64,000 nucleotides of DNA from Pinguiococcus pyrenoidosus (Eukaryota > Sar > Pinguiophyceae > Pinguiochrysidales > Pinguiochrysidaceae): contig JAAMXY010001516.1 of assembly GCA_019677205.1 (NCBI GenBank), forward strand, positions 124,001 through 188,000. Direction: 5' to 3'. This document shows positions 53,725 through 63,441 of this stretch, piece by piece. Every line of letters begins with the position of its first letter. Positions within the stretch are counted from its first letter, which is position 1. The notes beneath the pieces were generated by a model. That model was not told the origin of the DNA. It was given only the letters and a program-made list of their open reading frames with translations, and ran no database searches. A program made the translations under genes and the position numbers.

Positions 53725-54298
53725 CTTGAAGACGGGCTCTTCGCGGTCCCGATCGAACGTCACTAGAGGAGCAAAGGCCTCTGGGTCAGCGGGTGAGAAG
53801 CGCTGAGGTGGCGTGTCGCTGCTGCGGCGTTGAGAGGTTTGCTGGACTTGCAAGAACTTTTTGCGGGCTAGGCTCTCCTATTCTCCCATGCTACGCAAAC
53901 TTGAAGGCCTCTTTCAAACATGAGGCTTCCGGTTGGTCGTCATCCTCCAAGACCTCCCGTTCATTGGACGAAGCATCCTTCTTAATGATACCTTTGACCA
54001 ACGGGAGAAGGAAGACGAAAACCAACACCAAAATTTGACGCAGGAATTCCAGTATGCTGTCGAATACTGGAACATGCCAAGTTGCCGCACGGTTTCTTCC
54101 ATCGCATTGCGCGCGCCTTTTCAGCCTCCCCGCGTCGTCTCAGGTGGAATGCTGCTGCCCTGCATAGTAGACGTTACAAGAATAAGCCTGAGGAGGCTTT
54201 GCTGAAGTGGCGGGGGAACTCTTGGGCAAAACCATTCCAGACCAGTCCTTTGGGCGGAGAAGGCAGAACATCGCCGGAGGCCTCCAAGAAGGGCAGGC

Positions 54299-55567
54299 AT
54301 GGACGATGGTGGCGCGGAGGGGCTGAGCGATGCGTTCGCTGCTGGGGTACTTGTGGAGAGACTGTCCGAGGGTGACAGAGTGGACCCTACCGTGGCCCAG
54401 CGAATCTTGTCCGGTCGCGAGAGCGGCGATTCCAGCGATTTACCGCCGACGTCGCTGCCACGGGGTCGGCAGCTTCTGGGGGCCCTGGATGAAGTGCTCG
54501 GCGCCGACGTCGACAGGAAGCATGCTCCCGCTAGTCCTGAGGACCTTCCGATGCCAACATTTGAGAGGCCCATTGCAGTCGACGACGAGGACGTCGAGTC
54601 CATCCGAAACACCGCCAATGCGTTGGATGGCGCTGACGAAGACGTGGGAGAAGCGAAGCTGTATGATCTAGGCTCCTTTTCTCGTGAAGCAAGAATTCTA
54701 AGCACTCCGAGAGAGGAGCTCGTTGGCGGGGAGGATGCAGCCGAGCAGCTCCCGGGGAGCGGCAGCCATGCAACCTCGAATGCTGCTCCGAGAGAACCAG
54801 CTCTGTCCAGTTCAAGATGCCTCCAAGCCTCTCACGAGGCAGATGCTTCTGAGAACGCCGACGAGGAGGCTACAGGAAATCAATTGAGGATGCGAGGGCC
54901 TCAGGAGACGAAGGAAGCGTTGAAAACCGGAGCATCGGGTTCCGGAAGTGGTGGTGACCTAGAGCAGCACTCGAACAGCCCAACGGGAAAGGAGGCTTCG
55001 AAAGAAGACGACCTCCTCTTGCACCTGCGGGACTCGCTGATGGAGATGGAGCAGGCTGTCCGGAAGCTCGACGAGCTCAGAAGTGATCTCACTAGAGCTT
55101 CGCACCGTTGCGCGAGCGGGAGTGACGAACCCGTCGACGCCCTGGAGGCGTTCATTGAACAAGCGTCTCCCAAAGCGCCGTGGAAAGGGTGGAAAGGGTG
55201 GAAAGGCGGTCATAAAAGCCAGTCTTCGCAGCGCAATGTGGTTTGGGAACCACCCTTACGGGAGACATACTTGAACAAGCTGCTGGAGAAAGAGCGCTCT
55301 TGGATGAAGGACGAGGTCGGGCTGCGAACGCGGGAAGAAGTCGTGAAAGGATCGGGGCCCACGTTTGGCCAATCTACGGTGTCTCTTGACCGCGACGGTA
55401 AGCGTAAAACCTCTCCCGGCAAGTTGCGTCCTCCTGACCTGACTTCTCCTGCTTTCTTAGACTATATCTTGATTCCCGTGGGATGGCACGCGAGCTGGGT
55501 GCACGCCAGCATGAAAGGGGAGCCTGCCTTGGAGGCGTATCAAGCAGGATACCGTGGGAGGAGGTGA
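54299..55567 (+). CDS. Hypothetical acidic, largely disordered protein
   Basis: One frame of 422 residues starting MDDGGAEGLSDAFAAGVLVE. The first ~220 residues are acidic and low in hydrophobics; a short coiled coil (LHLRDSLMEMEQAVRKLDEL) occurs near residue 250, followed by a WKGWKGWKG tandem encoded by a short GTGGAAAGG repeat, and a more ordered end (YLNKLLEKERSWMKDEVG, FLDYILIPVGWHASWVHASM). The composition and the lack of stops in one strand argue for a real gene, but no family is recognised. An upstream exon between 53900 and 54298 cannot be excluded. Confidence 0.5.
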   Translation: MDDGGAEGLSDAFAAGVLVERLSEGDRVDPTVAQRILSGRESGDSSDLPPTSLPRGRQLLGALDEVLGADVDRKHAPASPEDLPMPTFERPIAVDDEDVESIRNTANALDGADEDVGEAKLYDLGSFSREARILSTPREELVGGEDAAEQLPGSGSHATSNAAPREPALSSSRCLQASHEADASENADEEATGNQLRMRGPQETKEALKTGASGSGSGGDLEQHSNSPTGKEASKEDDLLLHLRDSLMEMEQAVRKLDELRSDLTRASHRCASGSDEPVDALEAFIEQASPKAPWKGWKGWKGGHKSQSSQRNVVWEPPLRETYLNKLLEKERSWMKDEVGLRTREEVVKGSGPTFGQSTVSLDRDGKRKTSPGKLRPPDLTSPAFLDYILIPVGWHASWVHASMKGEPALEAYQAGYRGRR

Positions 55568-55929
55568 AACACGCGGGGTGGGAAAGTAGGACAGACAACA
55601 GTCAGACTAAACAAAAAAGCTTCATACTGCCGCTCTCATGGTCCCCCTCTGCCGCATCGAAGTCTTCCAGTCGCTAGTGTCAGGCCACTCGTGGCGCACT
55701 GAAGGGCGAGAAGGGGCTCAAGTCGGAGGCGCGGGCGTTTCCTTCTGGACATGTTGCACATCCGGTGGGTAGGTACGGAAGATCCTCGAGATGAAGCAGG
55801 CCAGCTGACAAGTCAGCCAAGCCCGTGACGTGTTGGCGGACAGTCCATCTCCGCTGATCCTCCTTGTCCTGTCCTCATGCGAATCCTTGTGCAAGCACAG
55901 TGCCTTGTGGGCTTGTCGCGGATCCATAC
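55568..55929. other. Intergenic spacer between convergent genes
   Basis: 362 bp between the stop codons of the hypothetical (+) and the binding-protein gene (-); no feature seen. Confidence 0.4.
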
Positions 55930-58900
55930 TTACTGAATGTCCGATTCCCTGCTGTCCAGCTGAGCCTCCTCGAGGGTCGTCGTCTGCGAAATAAGCGCAT
56001 GATCGGGTTTTCCTTTCGTCGACGCGTTCCACGGCTTCGTGATCAGCACGGCAGCGACAATGAGGCCGACGACGACGAGAGGTACAATCACGGCGACCGC
56101 GATGAGCGTCGTGCTGTCGTCGTCGTCGCTATCGGTGCCGGTCGTCGCTGGTCTCGTGCATGCGTCACCCCGCTGCAGCCTCGGAGCCTCCGGATCGGGA
56201 CACGAAGTTTCAGGCATCTCCTCTTCGGTGAAGACATTCCTGAGCCACACTCGGGTGTGCACTGTGGTCGGCACATCGGGGTTGAGGATCGCGATCATGT
56301 CCTCTAGAAGCACATCCGGTTCGCTGACTCTTTCCTCGAACCACGCGTCGCCACCCAGCCGCGCTACGTCGTACGTGTTGCCCATCTGGACGGCCTTGAA
56401 CTGGTTGAGGGCCAATGTCTTGTTGTTCGAGGGATCCGCGGTCTCGCCATAGATGTCGTGCCAACCCAAGGTGAAGTCAGTCGAGACGCTCTTGACCACA
56501 AGGTAGTCGACGTCACCAAGAACGGCGAGGAGCTCTTCGTCGGTATAGAGGCTCGGCAAAGGATTGCCCAAAAAGTCGACACGGGAGATGGAACCTTCCA
56601 CGGCGCCCTCTTCGATGTACTCCCCTCCGGCACCTTCGGACACCTCACAGAAGTAGTTGGGACAGGGGCCGATCTCCCAGCCACCAGGTGAGCCCTTCCA
56701 TTCAATCCACGAGACCGTCGGCTTCGGCTGCAAGCCCAGCGCGTCGGCGCGCTCGAGATTGCACTCGTACGTTTCGACAAGCTGCGTCACAAGCTCAGTG
56801 CCGAGCGCTTCCTTGTTGTAAAACAGTGCCAGGAACTCGACCCACTCTCCTTGATTCAGCACGGTGTTCTCGTTGTACTCCGTGACCGCCACGGCGATGT
56901 CGCTCGCATCGGTCGGGAAGGAGGTGAAGATTACGTCCACGTCCAGCTCGGTCTCGATGTACGTGTAGTCGGGGCTGAACCCTGCGACCGCCACCTCTAT
57001 GTCGCCGCTGTCGACCAAAGCGCGTACGCAAGGGCTGTAGACGAAATCGAGACTCGTTCCCAGGGCAGCGATGGATCCGCGCTCCCCCAGCTGTTCAATC
57101 CAGGGGATGATCGTAGTGACCGCAACCACCGTGGCGCGTACCGGCACGCTGATGTACTTCTCGACGCCTGCGACGGTCGGCCGCGGGGTGCCGCATTGGT
57201 ACAGGACGACGGTCTCGTCGACGGCGGTGTTCCGGACGATCTTGTAGCTGTTGAAGTACTCCACCTCGATGGACAGGGCGTAATCGACCGTCATCTTGAC
57301 AGGGAAGTAATCGACCTCGGGGTCGTACTGGTCCTCCTGGATGCACAAGCCGTCGACGACGTTTCCGTCGGAGGGTTCCTCACAGCCGTCTCCGCGGACC
57401 ACCCGCGGAGCGGTAGGATCCTCGCAGGTCGTCTCGGGGCTTGCCTCCTCCGCGAAGACGTCCCGCAGCCAAACGCGGGTATGCTCAAGCGCGAGCAAGT
57501 CGTTGTTCAGAACAGACATGACATCCTCCAGAAGCACGTCGGGCTCGGAGCTTCTCTCCTCGAACCAGGCGTCGAGGCCGAGGCGAGTGACGTCGTAAAC
57601 CCTTTGCGCTTCCACGGCCACGAGCTGGTTGAGGACGTCGGTCTTGTTGACCGCGGCGCCGGGTCCATACAAATCATCCCAGCTGCCGGACTTGATGATC
57701 AAGACGTCCACATCTCGGACCACCTGCAAAAACTCCGCGTCTGTGTAGCGCGGGCCGAAGAAGCCCGTCACCGAACCGACCACGCCGGCAGTCTCGGCAG
57801 TGACGATGCGGCCACCAGCGTCCTCAGTAGTCTCGCAGAAATAGTTTGGGCATGCCCCAATGTCCCAGGCGTTGTCGAAGGTGCTCCACTCCACCCAGGC
57901 GACCGAGTAGTTGTTGCCCTGGAAGAAATCAGCGCGTCGCTCGTGGCACTCGTAGGTCTCCTTCATGGTTGTGAAGATTGCATTGGCCTGCGAACGGAAA
58001 CCGTGAGGGCAAGGTCCATTGCACGTATGTTTCTTCCTTAGCAGCTTCTGCTGCTTCCTCAGCAGCTTCTGCTGCTTCTCCTTGCTCCTTGCGCGCCAAC
58101 CTACCTCGGCCTCCTTGTTGTAGAAGAGAGACATGAACTCGATCCACTCGCCGGTGGTCAGCACGCTGTTCTCCAAGTATTCGGTCACGGCTACCGCAAG
58201 CGGATGGAGTCCTCCCTTCGGAATGGTGCCACATGAGCCGGACGACGCACGGCCGGTTCTCTTCCACGAGCGAGCAAAGGCACCTACCTCTGGGGTGAAG
58301 CTCTCGAAGACGATCTCCGCGCCGATAGCCTCGGCGGTGGTGTAGTTGGTGTTGAAACCATTGGCGGCGTCCACGATCTCTCCGCTTCGGAGCAGCGACG
58401 CCGTGCAGGGCGAGTACGGGGCGACCGTACCCCAGCCTGCGATCGTGGCACGCTCCCCGAGCTGCTCGATCCACGGCAGGAGCGTGGTGACGGCCACGAC
58501 GGACTTGGTGATGGGCACGCTGAAGTACTTGTCCGCGTCCGGGACGTTCGGGACGGGCGTGCCACACTGGTACAGGACGAACTTCTGCTCGTTGCCCGGA
58601 GCGGTGACTTCGACCACCTAGGAGGCGGCGTGAAAAGACTGAGACGGCGGCCGGCGTACGTGGTCTCTCGCCTCCGGATCTTGGGCGCCACTGCACTCCC
58701 CCCTCCGTCCCCTCGGTCGGGGCCCCGCGCAGGCGAGGCGAAGGGCCTCAGCGAAGGCCGAGGTGGCACATACCTTGTAGCTGTTGTTGTAGGTGACCTC
58801 GAAGTGGGTGGCAAAGTCCACGAGGATCTTGTCCGGGAAGTAGTCGACGCTTCCGTCGTACTGGCCGTCAGCGACGCAGCTGCCGTCCACGAGGTTGCCG

Positions 58901-58962
58901 GCTTGGGCCTGCGCGCCCACGAGGATGCAGAGGCCCAGAAAGGCGGCCACACGGAAAGACAT
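55930..58962 (-). CDS. Membrane-anchored protein with two tandem periplasmic-binding-protein-like domains
   Basis: Exons 58962-58774, 58617-58288, 58215-58105 and 57987-55930 join in phase. The product has a signal peptide (MSFRVAAFLGLCILVGAQAQ), two homologous domains of about 420 residues each, and near the C-terminus one membrane segment (TLIAVAVIVPLVVVGLIVAA) with a short charged tail. Both domains share GNLVDG/GNVVDG, YFPDKILVDFA/YFPVKMTVDYA, NSYK, LYQCGTP, VVAVTTLLPWIEQLGERATI (VVAVTTIIPWIEQLGER in the second), EW-FMSLFYNKEA, TYEC, CPNYFCE, YDVTRLGLDAWFEERSSEPD and VWLRDVFAEEASPETTCEDP. The pattern fits the class III (BtuF/FhuD-like) substrate-binding fold, without any ABC permease attached. 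Two introns (58216-58287 and 57988-58104) lie in open frame and were recognised only by comparison with the second, intronless domain. A cobalamin- or iron-chelate-binding surface protein (compare diatom CBA1) is the leading hypothesis; ligand unproven. Confidence 0.75.
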
Positions 58963-59588
58963 GGTGCGTGCGGTTCAGCGCGTGCGGCGTCCGAGGCGAG
59001 TCTGCGGGGGGACGAAATCGCTCACATGCGCGCAAATCCATTGGAAGTCGCGGATGCTCGGATTGGCCACCGAGTGATTGGGAATGCTACCGGCAGGGCC
59101 AATGTGCGCATCATATTCGGGAATAGACGGTCCGTTCACTTCCAAGGGAGTTGCAGGCTTGGCCCGGTCCTGGTCATAGCCCGTGACCAACATTGGGAAC
59201 GCGCCTTTGCACGCGCAGGGTTGGACGGGGCCAAACAAGGGTGGAATAAAGATTAGGAGTTGCCCTCGGCTGGCACGGGCAACAAACTGGTCCAACCAAC
59301 TTCCCCTGTCGGAGAAGCAAGTCGAAGTCGGGCATAGGATGGATGCTTGGAATCCTGTTCACCCGAGCCGTAGTTCCTGGAGATTAGCCCATTCCTGGGG
59401 GATTCTGCATTCATTGGTAGAGAGGAACATTCTGATGCATGATTCGTTCTTGCCACCTCTGCGATCACCAATGAAAATACCGGAACTTGTAAATCTCCTC
59501 GGATATGCTGGTCCTTGACCAATCCCTTTCCTTCTTTCCGCGTAAAGTGACGATCGGCGACTTTTATTAAGCTTTAAGCCCTTGGTTG

Positions 59589-59630
59589 GGCGGTTCACTT
59601 TTGGCGGTTCACTTTTGGCGGTTCACTTTT
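59589..59630. repeat. 14-bp tandem repeat, 3 copies
   Basis: Three perfect units of GGCGGTTCACTTTT at 59589, 59603 and 59617. Confidence 0.95.
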
Positions 59631-59675
59631 GGCGGACTTTCCGGGACTAGGGAGCGGCTTCCAGCTTGCGCGTTC

Positions 59676-59748
59676 TGGCAAGGACCAAGGGGCAAGGGGC
59701 AAGATGCAAGGGGCAAGATGCAAGGGGCAAGAGGCAAGGGGCAAGGGG
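59676..59748. repeat. GGCAAG-type heptamer/short-unit array
   Basis: Around ten imperfect units of GGCAAGG/GGCAAGA interspersed with ATGCAAG. The same unit type recurs in the last intron of the neighbouring TMEM63-like gene (60077-60120). Confidence 0.9.
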
Positions 59749-59885
59749 ATACCTTGGTTCTGGTTCCGGCGCCAAATTTCCTCAAGGTTTCCATCGCTCT
59801 TTCTCGTCCACTGACGCGAACAGTCCTCCGAGTGGAGTTCTCGCCCCAAAACCGCTTCCAAAACTCTGCGCACGCGGCGCCGGCC

Positions 59886-62800
59886 CTACATTCCCAGCTC
59901 ATCTAAGTTTACAGTCGGGCTCGGGATCTCGGCAGCGATGGGACTCGCATCGCGAAGATGGTCTTGGAGATACGTCGTGTCGTCGAACTTGGCGCAATCG
60001 ATCTTGTTCTTCGCCTCGGCTTGCTCAGTCCCTGCAAACGAATCCAAGCCACGATTATCAAGACAAGCAACGCAAAAGGCAAGAGGCAAGAGGCAAGAGG
60101 CAAGAGGCAAGAGGCAAAAGGCAAACGAGCAAATGGCAAAAGAGCAAATGGCAAAAGAGCAAATTGCGATAGGAAGTCGCGTATCTGCTCCGCTTCTTAC
60201 CTAGATACGGAAGCACCGCCGCGACTTCAAACTCCGCGCTCAGGCGCAGGCCGTAGTAGATCGTCACGATGGGGAAGATGCAACAGAAAAGGGCTTGCTC
60301 GTACGCAAGCTTGATGCAAAGATACGTCACCAGCGCTGTCGCAGAGCATCGAGCGATATTAGTTCGAGGCAATCCGAGGCAATCCGAGGCAATCCGAGGC
60401 GAGCTTGTGTTTTGCTGCGTACCTATCTGACCAGCCACCATAGTGGAGATGGTGAACTTCAGCGCGTCCCAGAAGTACACGCCCCCTCCCTCCGATAGGG
60501 GCACATATGTGTACAGGAGCTGGTGCTTGTACACCACGTAGGTCACCAGGAATGTGAAGAAGCCCACGACAGACAGCAGCGGCGAAATGATCTGGAACGC
60601 ATACACGATGATCTGCGAGATGAAAACGGATGCAAACGCATATCCGTAGTACAGGTAGTTTGGGCGCCCTTCCCATCGGCGCATCGCTTGCTTGCCGCGA
60701 GAGAAGCCATAGTACAGCCGCACGCACACATACTCAAGGATGGCGAGGAACCTCGAGATCTCGAAGGCCGGCACGATAAACATGTTGAAGAACAGAAGCT
60801 TCAGCGAGAACACCGACGCCGTCGGCAACGAGCTCCCCAGGATGTTCATGACGTGCGCCGGGTTTCGCAAAAGCTCGAAGACGACCGTGATGATCGCTCC
60901 ACTGATGACCGAGACGTAGATGTACGCCAGCTGGTACCAGAAGTAGCGCGTGAAGACCTTCTGCTGCACCAGCACGATGCTCTTCAGTCCCTCGAAGTAC
61001 GTCGCGGAGAACTCGAACACGTACGGACTGAGCGCCAGAACGAGCACGAACAGCGTCGATGGCAAGTTCTCGAAGAGAAGGACGTAGAAGAAGGCGTTCA
61101 CCTCGGTCGAGCAGTTGGGATCGATGTTCAGCGCTTGCAAGACGGCGCCGGCATTGGCGAAGGCCGCCATCGGAATGGAGAGACTCATGGCGCCGAAGAT
61201 GAAGACGCAATCCGCAACGAACTGCCGGGCTCGTGCCGTCTCGGTGTTGATACACACGTTGGACCACAGGACGTCGCGCGGCTCGGGAGCATTCTGAACG
61301 ATGAGCCGCGGGAAGTAGTCGTAGTTGTCCTTCAAGCTCTCAACGGGCGACTCCGACCTGGCGACGCCCTCTCCCTCGCCCGACTCTTCCTTCCCTTCGA
61401 CGTCGATCTCCTCCATGTCGTCCATGTCGGCGATGATGAAGTTTGGGTCGCTGTCGTCGGCCCGAGTACGGTAGAGGCTGAGCGAGTCCAGGACCCTCCG
61501 CGTGTCCCCTTCGCGCTCGAGGTTCTTCAGCTCCTCAATATCGGGGAAGATCTTGCGGGCGATGGTGAGCCTCCGCGACCTCAGCCTGCCATCCAAGATG
61601 ATCTGCTGGCACTTGAGCTTGGCCTTCAAGGTCTTGAAAGTGATGAAAGCCGTCGAGGACGGGCGGATGCCGCGGTGCGTCGGGTAGGGGCTGCAGTGGG
61701 AAAGGGCACGCGCGATCCAGCGCAAGGTTCTGAGGATTCCCTGCACGGTGTAGATCAAGGCATCTGCGATTTCCCGGAGGCTGGCAGAGCAAGCGGCGGC
61801 GCCGAGAGAGCTGCCGGTCGACAGGCTTGGCGTGGTGTTCTTAGACGACTTGGCCATATCGTTCGCCGTGAGCCGCTCGCTCTGGCCGCCATCACCGTGG
61901 AAGGGGGACAGGTGCATCTCCACGTCACGACTGCCGCCATCCGACAGCGTCCTGATCCGGTCGTACTCGGCGATGTCGTTCTCGATGGGCTGCGTCGCGC
62001 CCCAGGCCAAAAGCGACCGAATGAGGCGACGGTGGAAGCGCTCAATCTTCAGCTCCATCCACTCCAACGCATTCTCCACTCGTCCGCCGTCGAATTCATC
62101 CACGGTGGCCGTATCAGCCTCGCCCGCGAGCGGCCCGACGATTTCCTTCCGCGGCGTCCTGGACGGAGAAGACGGCACCGGCAACTCCGTGCCCTCCGCG
62201 GGGGTGGAGAAGTCTGGAACGAGCAGGCCACCGCTGTTGTCGCCGCCAGTGATCCGGTGCCCGAGCTCGGCGATGGTCAAGGCCTTCTGCGTCTCGCCGA
62301 TGCGGATCACGTTCAGGCAGTCCAGGACCGTCTGGAGCCACTGCGCCCGTGCTGCCTTGCGAACTCCACACACGATCTGCGACTCGTCCGCGCGGCAGAA
62401 GCCACAGTAGCAGATGGTCTCCATCGTCGTCAGCAGGAACACGCGCAGCAGGGTGAAGAACCGGTAGACGGAGCCATACCAATGGTACTCCGCGCGAAGA
62501 GTGGCCTCTTCCACCGGTGTCTTTCGCCAGGGAAACACCGTCTCCGTCACGCCCGCCGTTCGCTTCAGCATGGTGCTCTCCTCGATGTTCTCCTTCAGCT
62601 CATTCGCGGACAGCCACGCCTGCCTCACGCGGCTGCTGTACACGCAGCAGTTCACGCTGAAGACTTCTCCATCGCTGATCTTGTTGAAGTACGTCCGCAG
62701 AGCGCCGTTGGAGCGAAGGCTGGGCGGCAGCCCTTCCACCAGGATGCTGTACACCGCCTGCTTGCTCGCACTGGGGTCGCCGTTGAACTGGAAGTACCGC

Positions 62801-63441
62801 TGCAGCTTGGAGAACAGGAGGAACTCCTTGTGCAGCTGGTTCAGGGCGTGCAGCGTGAAGAGGCCAGAAAGCAAGGCCGGGATCCAGAGCACGCGGTCGG
62901 CATCGGTCTCCCACCAGCTGCTCTCCGCGCTGCGGATCTCGGCGCCACGGATGTTCGCCATGGTCCACGACAGGAAGCGGCCGTCGTCGAATTCCTCTCC
63001 GTGCTCCCGGTAGACGGGAAGGAGGAAGATGGCGCCCAGGAGCGCCGCGAAGCCGGCTTGCCTCGTGGCCATCTTGAGGAACCGCAGGAAGCAGTAGGCG
63101 TCCAGGCCCACCGCTTGGAAGAGCCGGTTGTCTTCGGCCTTGCATCGCGGATCATCGCCGTCGTCGGGAACCCGAAGCGTCGCCCAAAGCCAGGCGAACG
63201 GGCCGGATCCCCTCTTCGGTGGTGTGAGCGCATGGCCGTGCAGTCGTCGGGACTCGTAGGTATCAAAAAGCCGCGTGGAGTACACGGCTCGGTCGAGCGC
63301 TGGGAAGCGCTTGGTGACCTCGTACACGGACAGCAGGAGCACCGCCACCATCACGCAGAAGAGCAGCGTCCAGCCGATGTTTTGCCATGGCTCCAGTGTG
63401 GAATCGGTCGTGTCTTCGCAGTTGTCTTGAAAGACACCCAT
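59886..63441 (-). CDS. TMEM63/OSCA/CSC1-family membrane channel
   Basis: Exons 63441-60423, 60335-60201 and 60031-59886 join in phase and give 1099 residues. The N-terminal membrane segments (WTLLFCVMVAVLLLSVYEVT), VGLDAYCFLRFLKMATRQAG, a large cytosolic domain and RSRRLTIARKIFPDIEE give way to DVLWSNVCINTETARARQFV. The C-terminal block of about seven membrane helices includes AFFYVLLFENLPSTLFVLVL and YLAYGF-like aromatic pore regions. These are hallmarks of the calcium-permeable, stretch- and osmotically-gated OSCA/TMEM63 (CSC1, DUF221) family. Compared with ~750-800 residues usually, the cytosolic loop carries two disordered insertions (about residues 390-560). The last exon adds a soluble tail ending SPTVNLDELGM, reached through a 169-nt intron full of GGCAAGA repeats. 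The first intron (60336-60422) contains four copies of a 10-bp repeat. Confidence 0.9.
60077..60165. repeat. Intronic minisatellites (AGGCAAG and 15-bp unit)
   Basis: Five copies of AGGCAAG at about 60077-60120 followed by 2.5 copies of GAGCAAATGGCAAAA at 60127-60165. Both are inside intron 60032-60200; on the sense (-) strand they read as C/T-rich sequence ahead of the acceptor. Confidence 0.9.
60364..60402. repeat. 10-bp tandem repeat in an intron
   Basis: Four units of CGAGGCAATC inside intron 60336-60422 of the TMEM63-like gene. Confidence 0.9.

What the first reader, a model, noticed from the sequence alone, without database searches (positions are those of the whole stretch)
55930..58962. 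Tandem two-domain BtuF/FhuD-like surface protein in a eukaryotic alga
Secreted, membrane-anchored, with two full-length periplasmic-binding-protein-like domains in one chain and no transporter attached. Single-domain relatives include algal cobalamin-acquisition (CBA1) or siderophore-binding proteins. A fused pair could bind ligand cooperatively, bind two ligands, or use one domain as a dimer partner. This is the best candidate for an undescribed uptake system in the window.
Basis: partly seen in the sequence, partly recalled or inferred. Interest (0 to 1): 0.85.

Follow-up and report, generated by a model that had tools for sequence, protein, structure and literature searches.

The report
Two-domain algal vitamin B12 uptake protein
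A gene of an alga encodes, in one chain, two copies of the domain of CBA1, the known algal vitamin B12 uptake protein, followed by a predicted membrane anchor, so it likely captures the vitamin with two binding sites instead of one.

Summary

The family is not undescribed. A profile search reached CHLRE_02g081050, the Chlamydomonas CBA1 shown in print to be needed for B12 uptake. Of 16 published CBA1 residues, domain 1 keeps 14 and domain 2 keeps 15; two other PF01497 proteins keep 5 and 4. The genome (Pinguiococcus pyrenoidosus by its EukProt match) has METH and methylmalonyl-CoA mutase; METE, a BtuC-like permease and a second CBA1 were not found.

Of 41 proteins retrieved, four (this gene included) are tandem, from two or three independent duplications. 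And a bacterial CBA1-type family, mostly beside a BtuC/FecCD-like permease and an ABC ATPase, has a cobalamin riboswitch upstream on the same strand in 33 of 38 loci scanned, which supports B12 as ligand.

Binding by either domain, the gain from pairing and the transporter partner are untested.

The parts
58774..58962 (-). Exon 1 (residues 1-63), holding the signal-peptide-like N-terminus (about residues 1-21, 58900-58962) and the start of domain 1
   Evidence: ORF and splice reconstruction; signal peptide judged by eye only
58618..58773 (-). Intron 1 (156 nt, GT-AG)
   Evidence: splicing aligns domain 1 with domain 2
58288..58617 (-). Exon 2 (residues 64-173), domain 1
58216..58287 (-). Intron 2 (72 nt); read through, it falls in a stretch of pLDDT under 50
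58105..58215 (-). Exon 3 (residues 174-210), domain 1
57988..58104 (-). Intron 3 (117 nt); read through, it falls in a stretch of pLDDT under 50
57355..58899 (-). CBA1-type binding domain 1 (residues ~22-421, introns included in the span); keeps 14 of 16 published CBA1 residues, including the four placed around B12 in print (here W241, W351, F352, E353)
56137..57354 (-). CBA1-type binding domain 2 (residues 422-827); keeps 15 of 16 published residues, including the four placed around B12 in print (here W637, W759, F760, E761); class III binding-protein fold
56041..56115 (-). Predicted transmembrane helix (residues ~835-859) after an Asp-rich stretch
   Evidence: hydropathy
55930..56040 (-). 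Predicted cytosolic tail (residues ~860-895) and stop

Best explanation
This gene encodes a two-domain form of CBA1, the algal vitamin B12 uptake protein, which likely captures cobalamin outside the cell or in the secretory membranes with two binding modules on one predicted membrane anchor and would pass it to a separate, still unidentified transporter. Shown here: two full CBA1-type domains in one chain, the modelled class III fold of domain 2, conservation of the published CBA1 residues in both domains, a C-terminal hydrophobic stretch, a single detected locus in a genome with B12-dependent methionine synthase and no detected B12-independent one, and bacterial relatives in riboswitch-preceded loci with ABC permease and ATPase genes. 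Inferred: that the ligand is cobalamin, that both domains bind, that the pair raises capture (more sites and faster rebinding per anchor), and that a partner transporter finishes the uptake.
For: Reaches CrCBA1 (P0036, CHLRE_02g081050) by profile, E 4e-49; CrCBA1 searched back into the genome hits only this gene, best E 1.5e-18. The 16 published positions all check in P0036; domain 1 keeps 14 and domain 2 keeps 15, with the four residues placed around B12 (W255, W394, F395, E396) intact in both, against 5 and 4 in two PF01497 controls (positions from PMC10828217). Fold. Genome: METH and methylmalonyl-CoA mutase present, METE N- and C-terminal families not found. Bacterial relatives: 33 of 38 scanned loci have a cobalamin riboswitch upstream on the same strand; 23 of 38 within 1.5 kb against 2 of 22 non-CBA1-type PF01497 loci (Fisher p 7e-5). 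A permease cluster occurs in 57 of 80 loci, an ATPase cluster in 48, a TonB-receptor cluster in 15 and a cobalamin adenosyltransferase cluster in 11 (one representative annotated per cluster). CBA1 knockouts cannot take up B12 (PMC10828217, passages).
Against: No binding, expression or localisation data for this protein. Identity to CrCBA1 is only 29.5% (domain 2) and 33.1% (domain 1). The listed structural matches are siderophore, heme and other binders, without BtuF. Domain 1 has Tyr at the P251 position. In 42 bacterial relatives E396 is kept in 41, but W255 is not kept, W394 is mostly Tyr, and F395 is Trp, Tyr or Phe in most, so ligand contacts may differ. Streptophyte CBA1-like proteins occur without B12 use (PMC10828217), so membership alone does not prove the ligand. 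No FecCD/BtuC permease was found in the genome. Assembly completeness is unknown, so absences are soft.
Confidence: 0.73

Rival explanations
1. Only one domain binds B12; the other has become a structural partner, spacer or docking surface for the transporter.
For: Domain 1 has lost one published residue that domain 2 keeps (P251 to Tyr). Another tandem relative has unequal halves: P0006a keeps 10 of 16 residues, P0006b 13.
Against: The four residues placed around B12 in print are intact in both domains, and the halves have diverged about equally (branch lengths 0.51 and 0.56).
Confidence: 0.3
2. A siderophore- or heme-binding surface protein (FhuD-like or FBP1-like) rather than a B12 protein.
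For: The best structural matches include many siderophore and heme binders, and PF01497 covers such proteins.
Against: Those matches are at 9-18% identity and shared by the fold class. Sequence relatives reach CBA1 and riboswitch-preceded cobalamin loci. FBP1 itself was not available for comparison.
Confidence: 0.1
3. A B12 sensor or receptor rather than an uptake protein; the tail signals when ligand is bound.
For: A related protein, P0031, joins a CBA1-type ectodomain to a hydrophobic helix and a protein kinase domain.
Against: The tail here is about 36 residues and Pfam finds no domain in it over a cut-off; CBA1 loss abolishes uptake in two algae (PMC10828217).
Confidence: 0.08
4. Gene-model or assembly artefact: two neighbouring CBA1 genes wrongly joined.
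For: No transcript evidence here; the EukProt model of the same gene differs in the introns.
Against: Domain 2 and the last part of domain 1 share one uninterrupted exon (57987-55930), a EukProt model also joins them (P0001), and the halves are only 53% identical, so they are not an assembly duplicate.
Confidence: 0.03

Closest known systems
CBA1 (cobalamin acquisition protein 1), Chlamydomonas Cre02.g081050 / Phaeodactylum Phatr3_J48322
   Same: Domain family, published conserved residues, class III binding-protein fold, N-terminal hydrophobic leader, C-terminal hydrophobic helix, co-occurrence with METH
   Different: Two domains per chain instead of one; 42 residues follow the most hydrophobic 15-residue stretch, whereas CrCBA1 ends 3 residues after it. 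The Phaeodactylum sequence itself was not at hand
P0006 and P0029 (unnamed ena contigs, 1103 and 999 aa) and P0002 (unnamed jgi contig, 1169 aa)
   Same: Two CBA1-type domains in tandem
   Different: Independent duplications on the tree; P0002's halves are 98.1% identical and its first is truncated, so it may be recent or an assembly effect
Bacterial CBA1-type substrate-binding proteins (loci L010-L089)
   Same: The DYFP...YK...QCGTP N-terminal region and most CBA1 positions (mean 12.3 of 16 over 42 sequences)
   Different: Encoded mostly beside FecCD-type permease and ABC ATPase genes, often behind a cobalamin riboswitch; the aromatic cluster differs
BtuF of E. coli
   Same: Fold class and presumed ligand; PMC10828217 superposes CrCBA1 on it
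   Different: No NCBIfam match at all for domain 2; BtuF lacks the CBA1 N-terminal region (recalled)
GlnPQ-type ABC importers with tandem substrate-binding domains (recalled)
   Same: Two binding domains in one chain
   Different: There the domains are fused to the permease; here there is no permease, and the fold class differs (recalled)

Membership tests
CBA1 | Sequence similarity to an experimentally tested CBA1 | tested here: met
   Tandem profile finds P0036 = CHLRE_02g081050, E 4e-49; reverse search hits only this gene, E 1.5e-18
CBA1 | The 16 conserved residues listed in PMC10828217 Fig. 8 | tested here: met
   14 of 16 (domain 1) and 15 of 16 (domain 2); controls 5 and 4
CBA1 | Class III / BtuF-like binding-protein fold | tested here: met
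CBA1 | N-terminal signal peptide | tested here: inconclusive
   Hydrophobic leader read by eye; no trained predictor available
CBA1 | C-terminal hydrophobic helix | tested here: met
   Highest 19-residue hydropathy, 3.26, starts at residue 841
CBA1 | Occurs with B12-dependent methionine synthase (METH) | tested here: met
   PF02965 E 7.9e-114 on C154; METE families not found
CBA1 | One binding domain per chain (the usual architecture, not part of the published definition) | tested here: not met
   Two domains; hence filed as a variant
CBA1 | Required for B12 uptake; induced by B12 starvation | not testable with these tools
   Needs knockout, complementation and RT-qPCR
BtuF (NCBIfam equivalog) | Score over the curated BtuF cut-off | tested here: not met
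   No NCBIfam match for domain 2; bacterial relative P0020 scores 18.1 against 234
PF01497 Peripla_BP_2 | Score over the Pfam gathering cut-off | tested here: not met
   No match for the chain or domain 2, though relatives P0002, P0019, P0020, P0021 and P0026 pass it
FBP1/FhuD siderophore-binding proteins | Closer to FBP1/FhuD than to CBA1 | not tested
   No FBP1 sequence was at hand

The most novel reading that the evidence does not exclude
Eukaryotes took over the binding protein of a bacterial, riboswitch-controlled B12 importer without its permease, and several lineages then independently doubled it into a bivalent B12 trap on one anchor; Pinguiococcus relies on such a doubled CBA1 as its only one.
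Probability: 0.4. Interest if true: 0.75.

Novelty: new variant of a known kind. Interest (0 to 1): 0.58.

Why it matters
How algae take up B12 is still largely open: CBA1 is essential in two algae, but its ligand binding, its partner and its origin are unproven. The tandem form, here the only CBA1 detected in a predicted B12 auxotroph, gives a natural test of whether CBA1 works as a pair. The bacterial relatives, found behind cobalamin riboswitches with BtuC/FecCD-like permeases, give independent evidence that CBA1 is a B12-binding protein and supply simple soluble homologues for binding assays and structures.

Tried and rejected
Pfam, NCBIfam and PDB sequence searches with the window protein itself gave nothing useful; membership came through profiles of relatives. 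The genome's one PF01497 hit (C298, L001) is a different protein that does not match the CBA1 profile. MMACHC (PF16690) gave no match, but its control rang nowhere, so this says nothing. A scan of viral contigs with algal CBA1-type sequences found no relative. No Rfam family reached its threshold in window 54000-62000. The full-length model shows both domains but pTM 0.50, so their mutual arrangement is not known. E. coli BtuF was not among the 50 rows listed in either structural comparison, which excludes nothing. A permease partner was sought with FecCD only; none was found.

Riboswitch counts: 38 of the 80 fetched loci were scanned (80 kept of 133 stretches that encode a relative). The first 20 were picked among the shorter loci. 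All nine, and L071, had been listed in the failed before any result was seen; the other eight were chosen after one search was seen, without knowledge of their own result. The five loci without an upstream hit are L030, L031, L039 (only 50 bases upstream held), L064 and L073. Five further riboswitch hits lay elsewhere (L011, L029, L088, two in L089); the extra one in L029 precedes a second CBA1-type gene. The 22 control loci are 30 minus 8 that match the bacterial CBA1-type profile; two of the 22 have a riboswitch (L103, L116), some overlap each other (L108/L114, L112/L121, L113/L122) and some are cut short. In that same run 4 of the 8 CBA1-type loci showed a riboswitch within the stretch held. 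Distances for the 38 were taken from the start of the tblastn match.

Literature: PMC10828217 was read in sections 9 and 10 and in passages elsewhere; PMC12538271 and PMC11439496 in passages; all other papers only as search listings. Searches for CBA1 with B12 and tandem, with cobalamin and riboswitch, and for BtuF, algae and gene transfer showed no title on a tandem CBA1 or on riboswitch-controlled bacterial CBA1 relatives; most listed papers were not opened, and subscription papers and supplementary tables were not seen. FBP1, GlnPQ and BtuF details are recalled.

Full report
What is there. On the minus strand, exons 58962-58774, 58617-58288, 58215-58105 and 57987-55930 encode 895 residues: a hydrophobic leader, two repeats (residues ~22-421 and 422-827), an Asp-rich stretch, a hydrophobic helix (~835-859) and a tail of about 36 residues. 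The repeats are 53.3% identical over 390 positions. All three introns lie in the first repeat; the second has none. When introns 2 and 3 are read through, they fall in stretches of pLDDT under 50 of the full-length model (residues 108-136 and 170-208), which supports the splicing. The same gene is in EukProt under the name Pinguiococcus pyrenoidosus (P0001; Ochrophyta, Pinguiophyceae); the organism's identity rests on that match.

Family. The window protein has no Pfam match over a cut-off and domain 2 no NCBIfam match. Three searches returned 41 different proteins; all 41 match a profile built from 16 of them. One is P0036, CHLRE_02g081050, E 4e-49. PMC10828217 gives Cre02.g081050 as CrCBA1 and lists 16 conserved residues; all 16 sit at the stated positions in P0036. 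Domain 1 keeps 14 and domain 2 keeps 15. The changes are F215 to Tyr in both, a state found in 11 of the 30 eukaryote-side domains aligned, and P251 to Tyr in domain 1. The four residues that the paper places around B12 (W255, W394, F395, E396) are intact in both. Two other PF01497 proteins keep 5 and 4 and do not match the profile. CBA1 knockouts in Chlamydomonas and Phaeodactylum cannot take up B12, and complementation restores uptake in Chlamydomonas (PMC10828217, abstract passages).

B12 use by the host. The genome has METH and methylmalonyl-CoA mutase; neither METE family was found (with positive controls in known genomes). It is thus predicted to need B12. CrCBA1 and domain 2, searched against the genome, find only this gene. 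No FecCD/BtuC permease was found. Assembly completeness is unknown.

Independent tandems. Of the 41 proteins, four have two domains: P0001 (this gene), P0002, P0006 and P0029. On a tree of 52 rows the two window domains are sisters (support 100/99). P0002's halves are sisters (100/100), and P0006 and P0029 share an older duplication, the first domains grouping together (100/97) and the second domains together (99/94). So tandem CBA1 arose at least twice, three times if P0002 is not an assembly effect (its halves are 98.1% identical, on a 3.9 kb contig).

Bacterial relatives. Profile hits included bacterial proteins. A scan of genome contigs with an alignment of eight of them found 133 stretches that encode relatives, 80 kept as loci, many from Chloroflexota and Cyanobacteriota, with some Actinomycetota, Pseudomonadota and others and one archaeon. 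Clustering of frames within 7 kb gave a permease cluster in 57 of 80 loci, an ATPase cluster in 48, a TonB-receptor cluster in 15 and an adenosyltransferase cluster in 11. One representative each was annotated: FecCD (best NCBIfam match BtuC, under its cut-off), ABC_tran (best match corrinoid ATPase, under its cut-off), a TonB receptor (best match B12 receptor, under its cut-off) and cobalamin adenosyltransferase (over its cut-off). Cobalamin riboswitches (RF00174, in L075 RF01482) lie upstream on the same strand in 16 of 20, 8 of 9 and 9 of 9 loci scanned, 33 of 38 in all; 23 lie within 1.5 kb. As a control, 22 non-CBA1-type PF01497 loci, drawn by a search of nine genomes that hold CBA1-type genes, gave 2, Fisher p 7e-5. 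In the tree the eukaryote-side rows form one group (92/90) and the bacterial rows another (88/60); the direction of transfer is not shown.

Mechanism. Best reading: a B12-binding receptor on one membrane anchor, with two sites likely serving to hold and rebind a scarce vitamin before it is passed to a separate transporter. Shown: architecture, family, modelled fold of domain 2, residue conservation, genomic company of the relatives. Inferred: ligand, two-site binding, gain from pairing, transporter. The paper also leaves CBA1's partner open. CrCBA1 was seen at the plasma membrane and in regions that may be endomembranes, so a surface position is likely but not established here.

Verdict. The feature is real and the CBA1 guess was right, but it is a two-domain variant of a described uptake protein, not an undescribed system. 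The repeated independent pairing and the riboswitch-preceded bacterial relatives are the parts that a specialist would want to follow.

Noticed in passing
L010-L089 (bacterial loci): A bacterial CBA1-type substrate-binding family, many from Chloroflexota and Cyanobacteriota, sits behind cobalamin riboswitches (33 of 38 scanned loci) and mostly beside a FecCD-like permease and ABC ATPase.
   Followed up: yes
P0031 (EukProt g581.t1): A CBA1-type ectodomain, a hydrophobic helix and a protein kinase domain in one chain of 1310 aa: a possible B12 sensor kinase. It is 37-38% identical to the window domains.
   Followed up: partly
P0003 and P0004: CBA1-type domain followed by a Hint module.
   Followed up: partly
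L014:4836-5702 (cluster in 18 of 80 loci): A DUF7676 protein with a ferredoxin-like C-terminus stands between a TonB receptor and the CBA1-type gene in a cyanobacterial riboswitch locus; possibly a corrinoid-handling redox protein.
   Followed up: no
window 55930-58962: All three introns are in domain 1 and none in domain 2, which may bear on how the duplication arose.
   Followed up: no
L001 (G000:C298:4851-5270): The genome's only PF01497 match is a separate binding-protein-like protein that does not match the CBA1 profile; it looks similar to a second PF01497 protein next to the CBA1-type gene in L036.
   Followed up: partly
L112:1243-3123 and L096:1-2436: Bacterial tandem PF01497-type proteins, with two and about three repeats per chain, not of CBA1 type, in the genome of L036.
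   Followed up: no
window 60058-63441: Neighbouring minus-strand frame of the RSN1-type calcium-dependent channel family (PF02714, PF13967, PF14703).
   Followed up: partly
window 59690-59750: Short tandem GGCAAGG-type repeats between the two genes.
   Followed up: no
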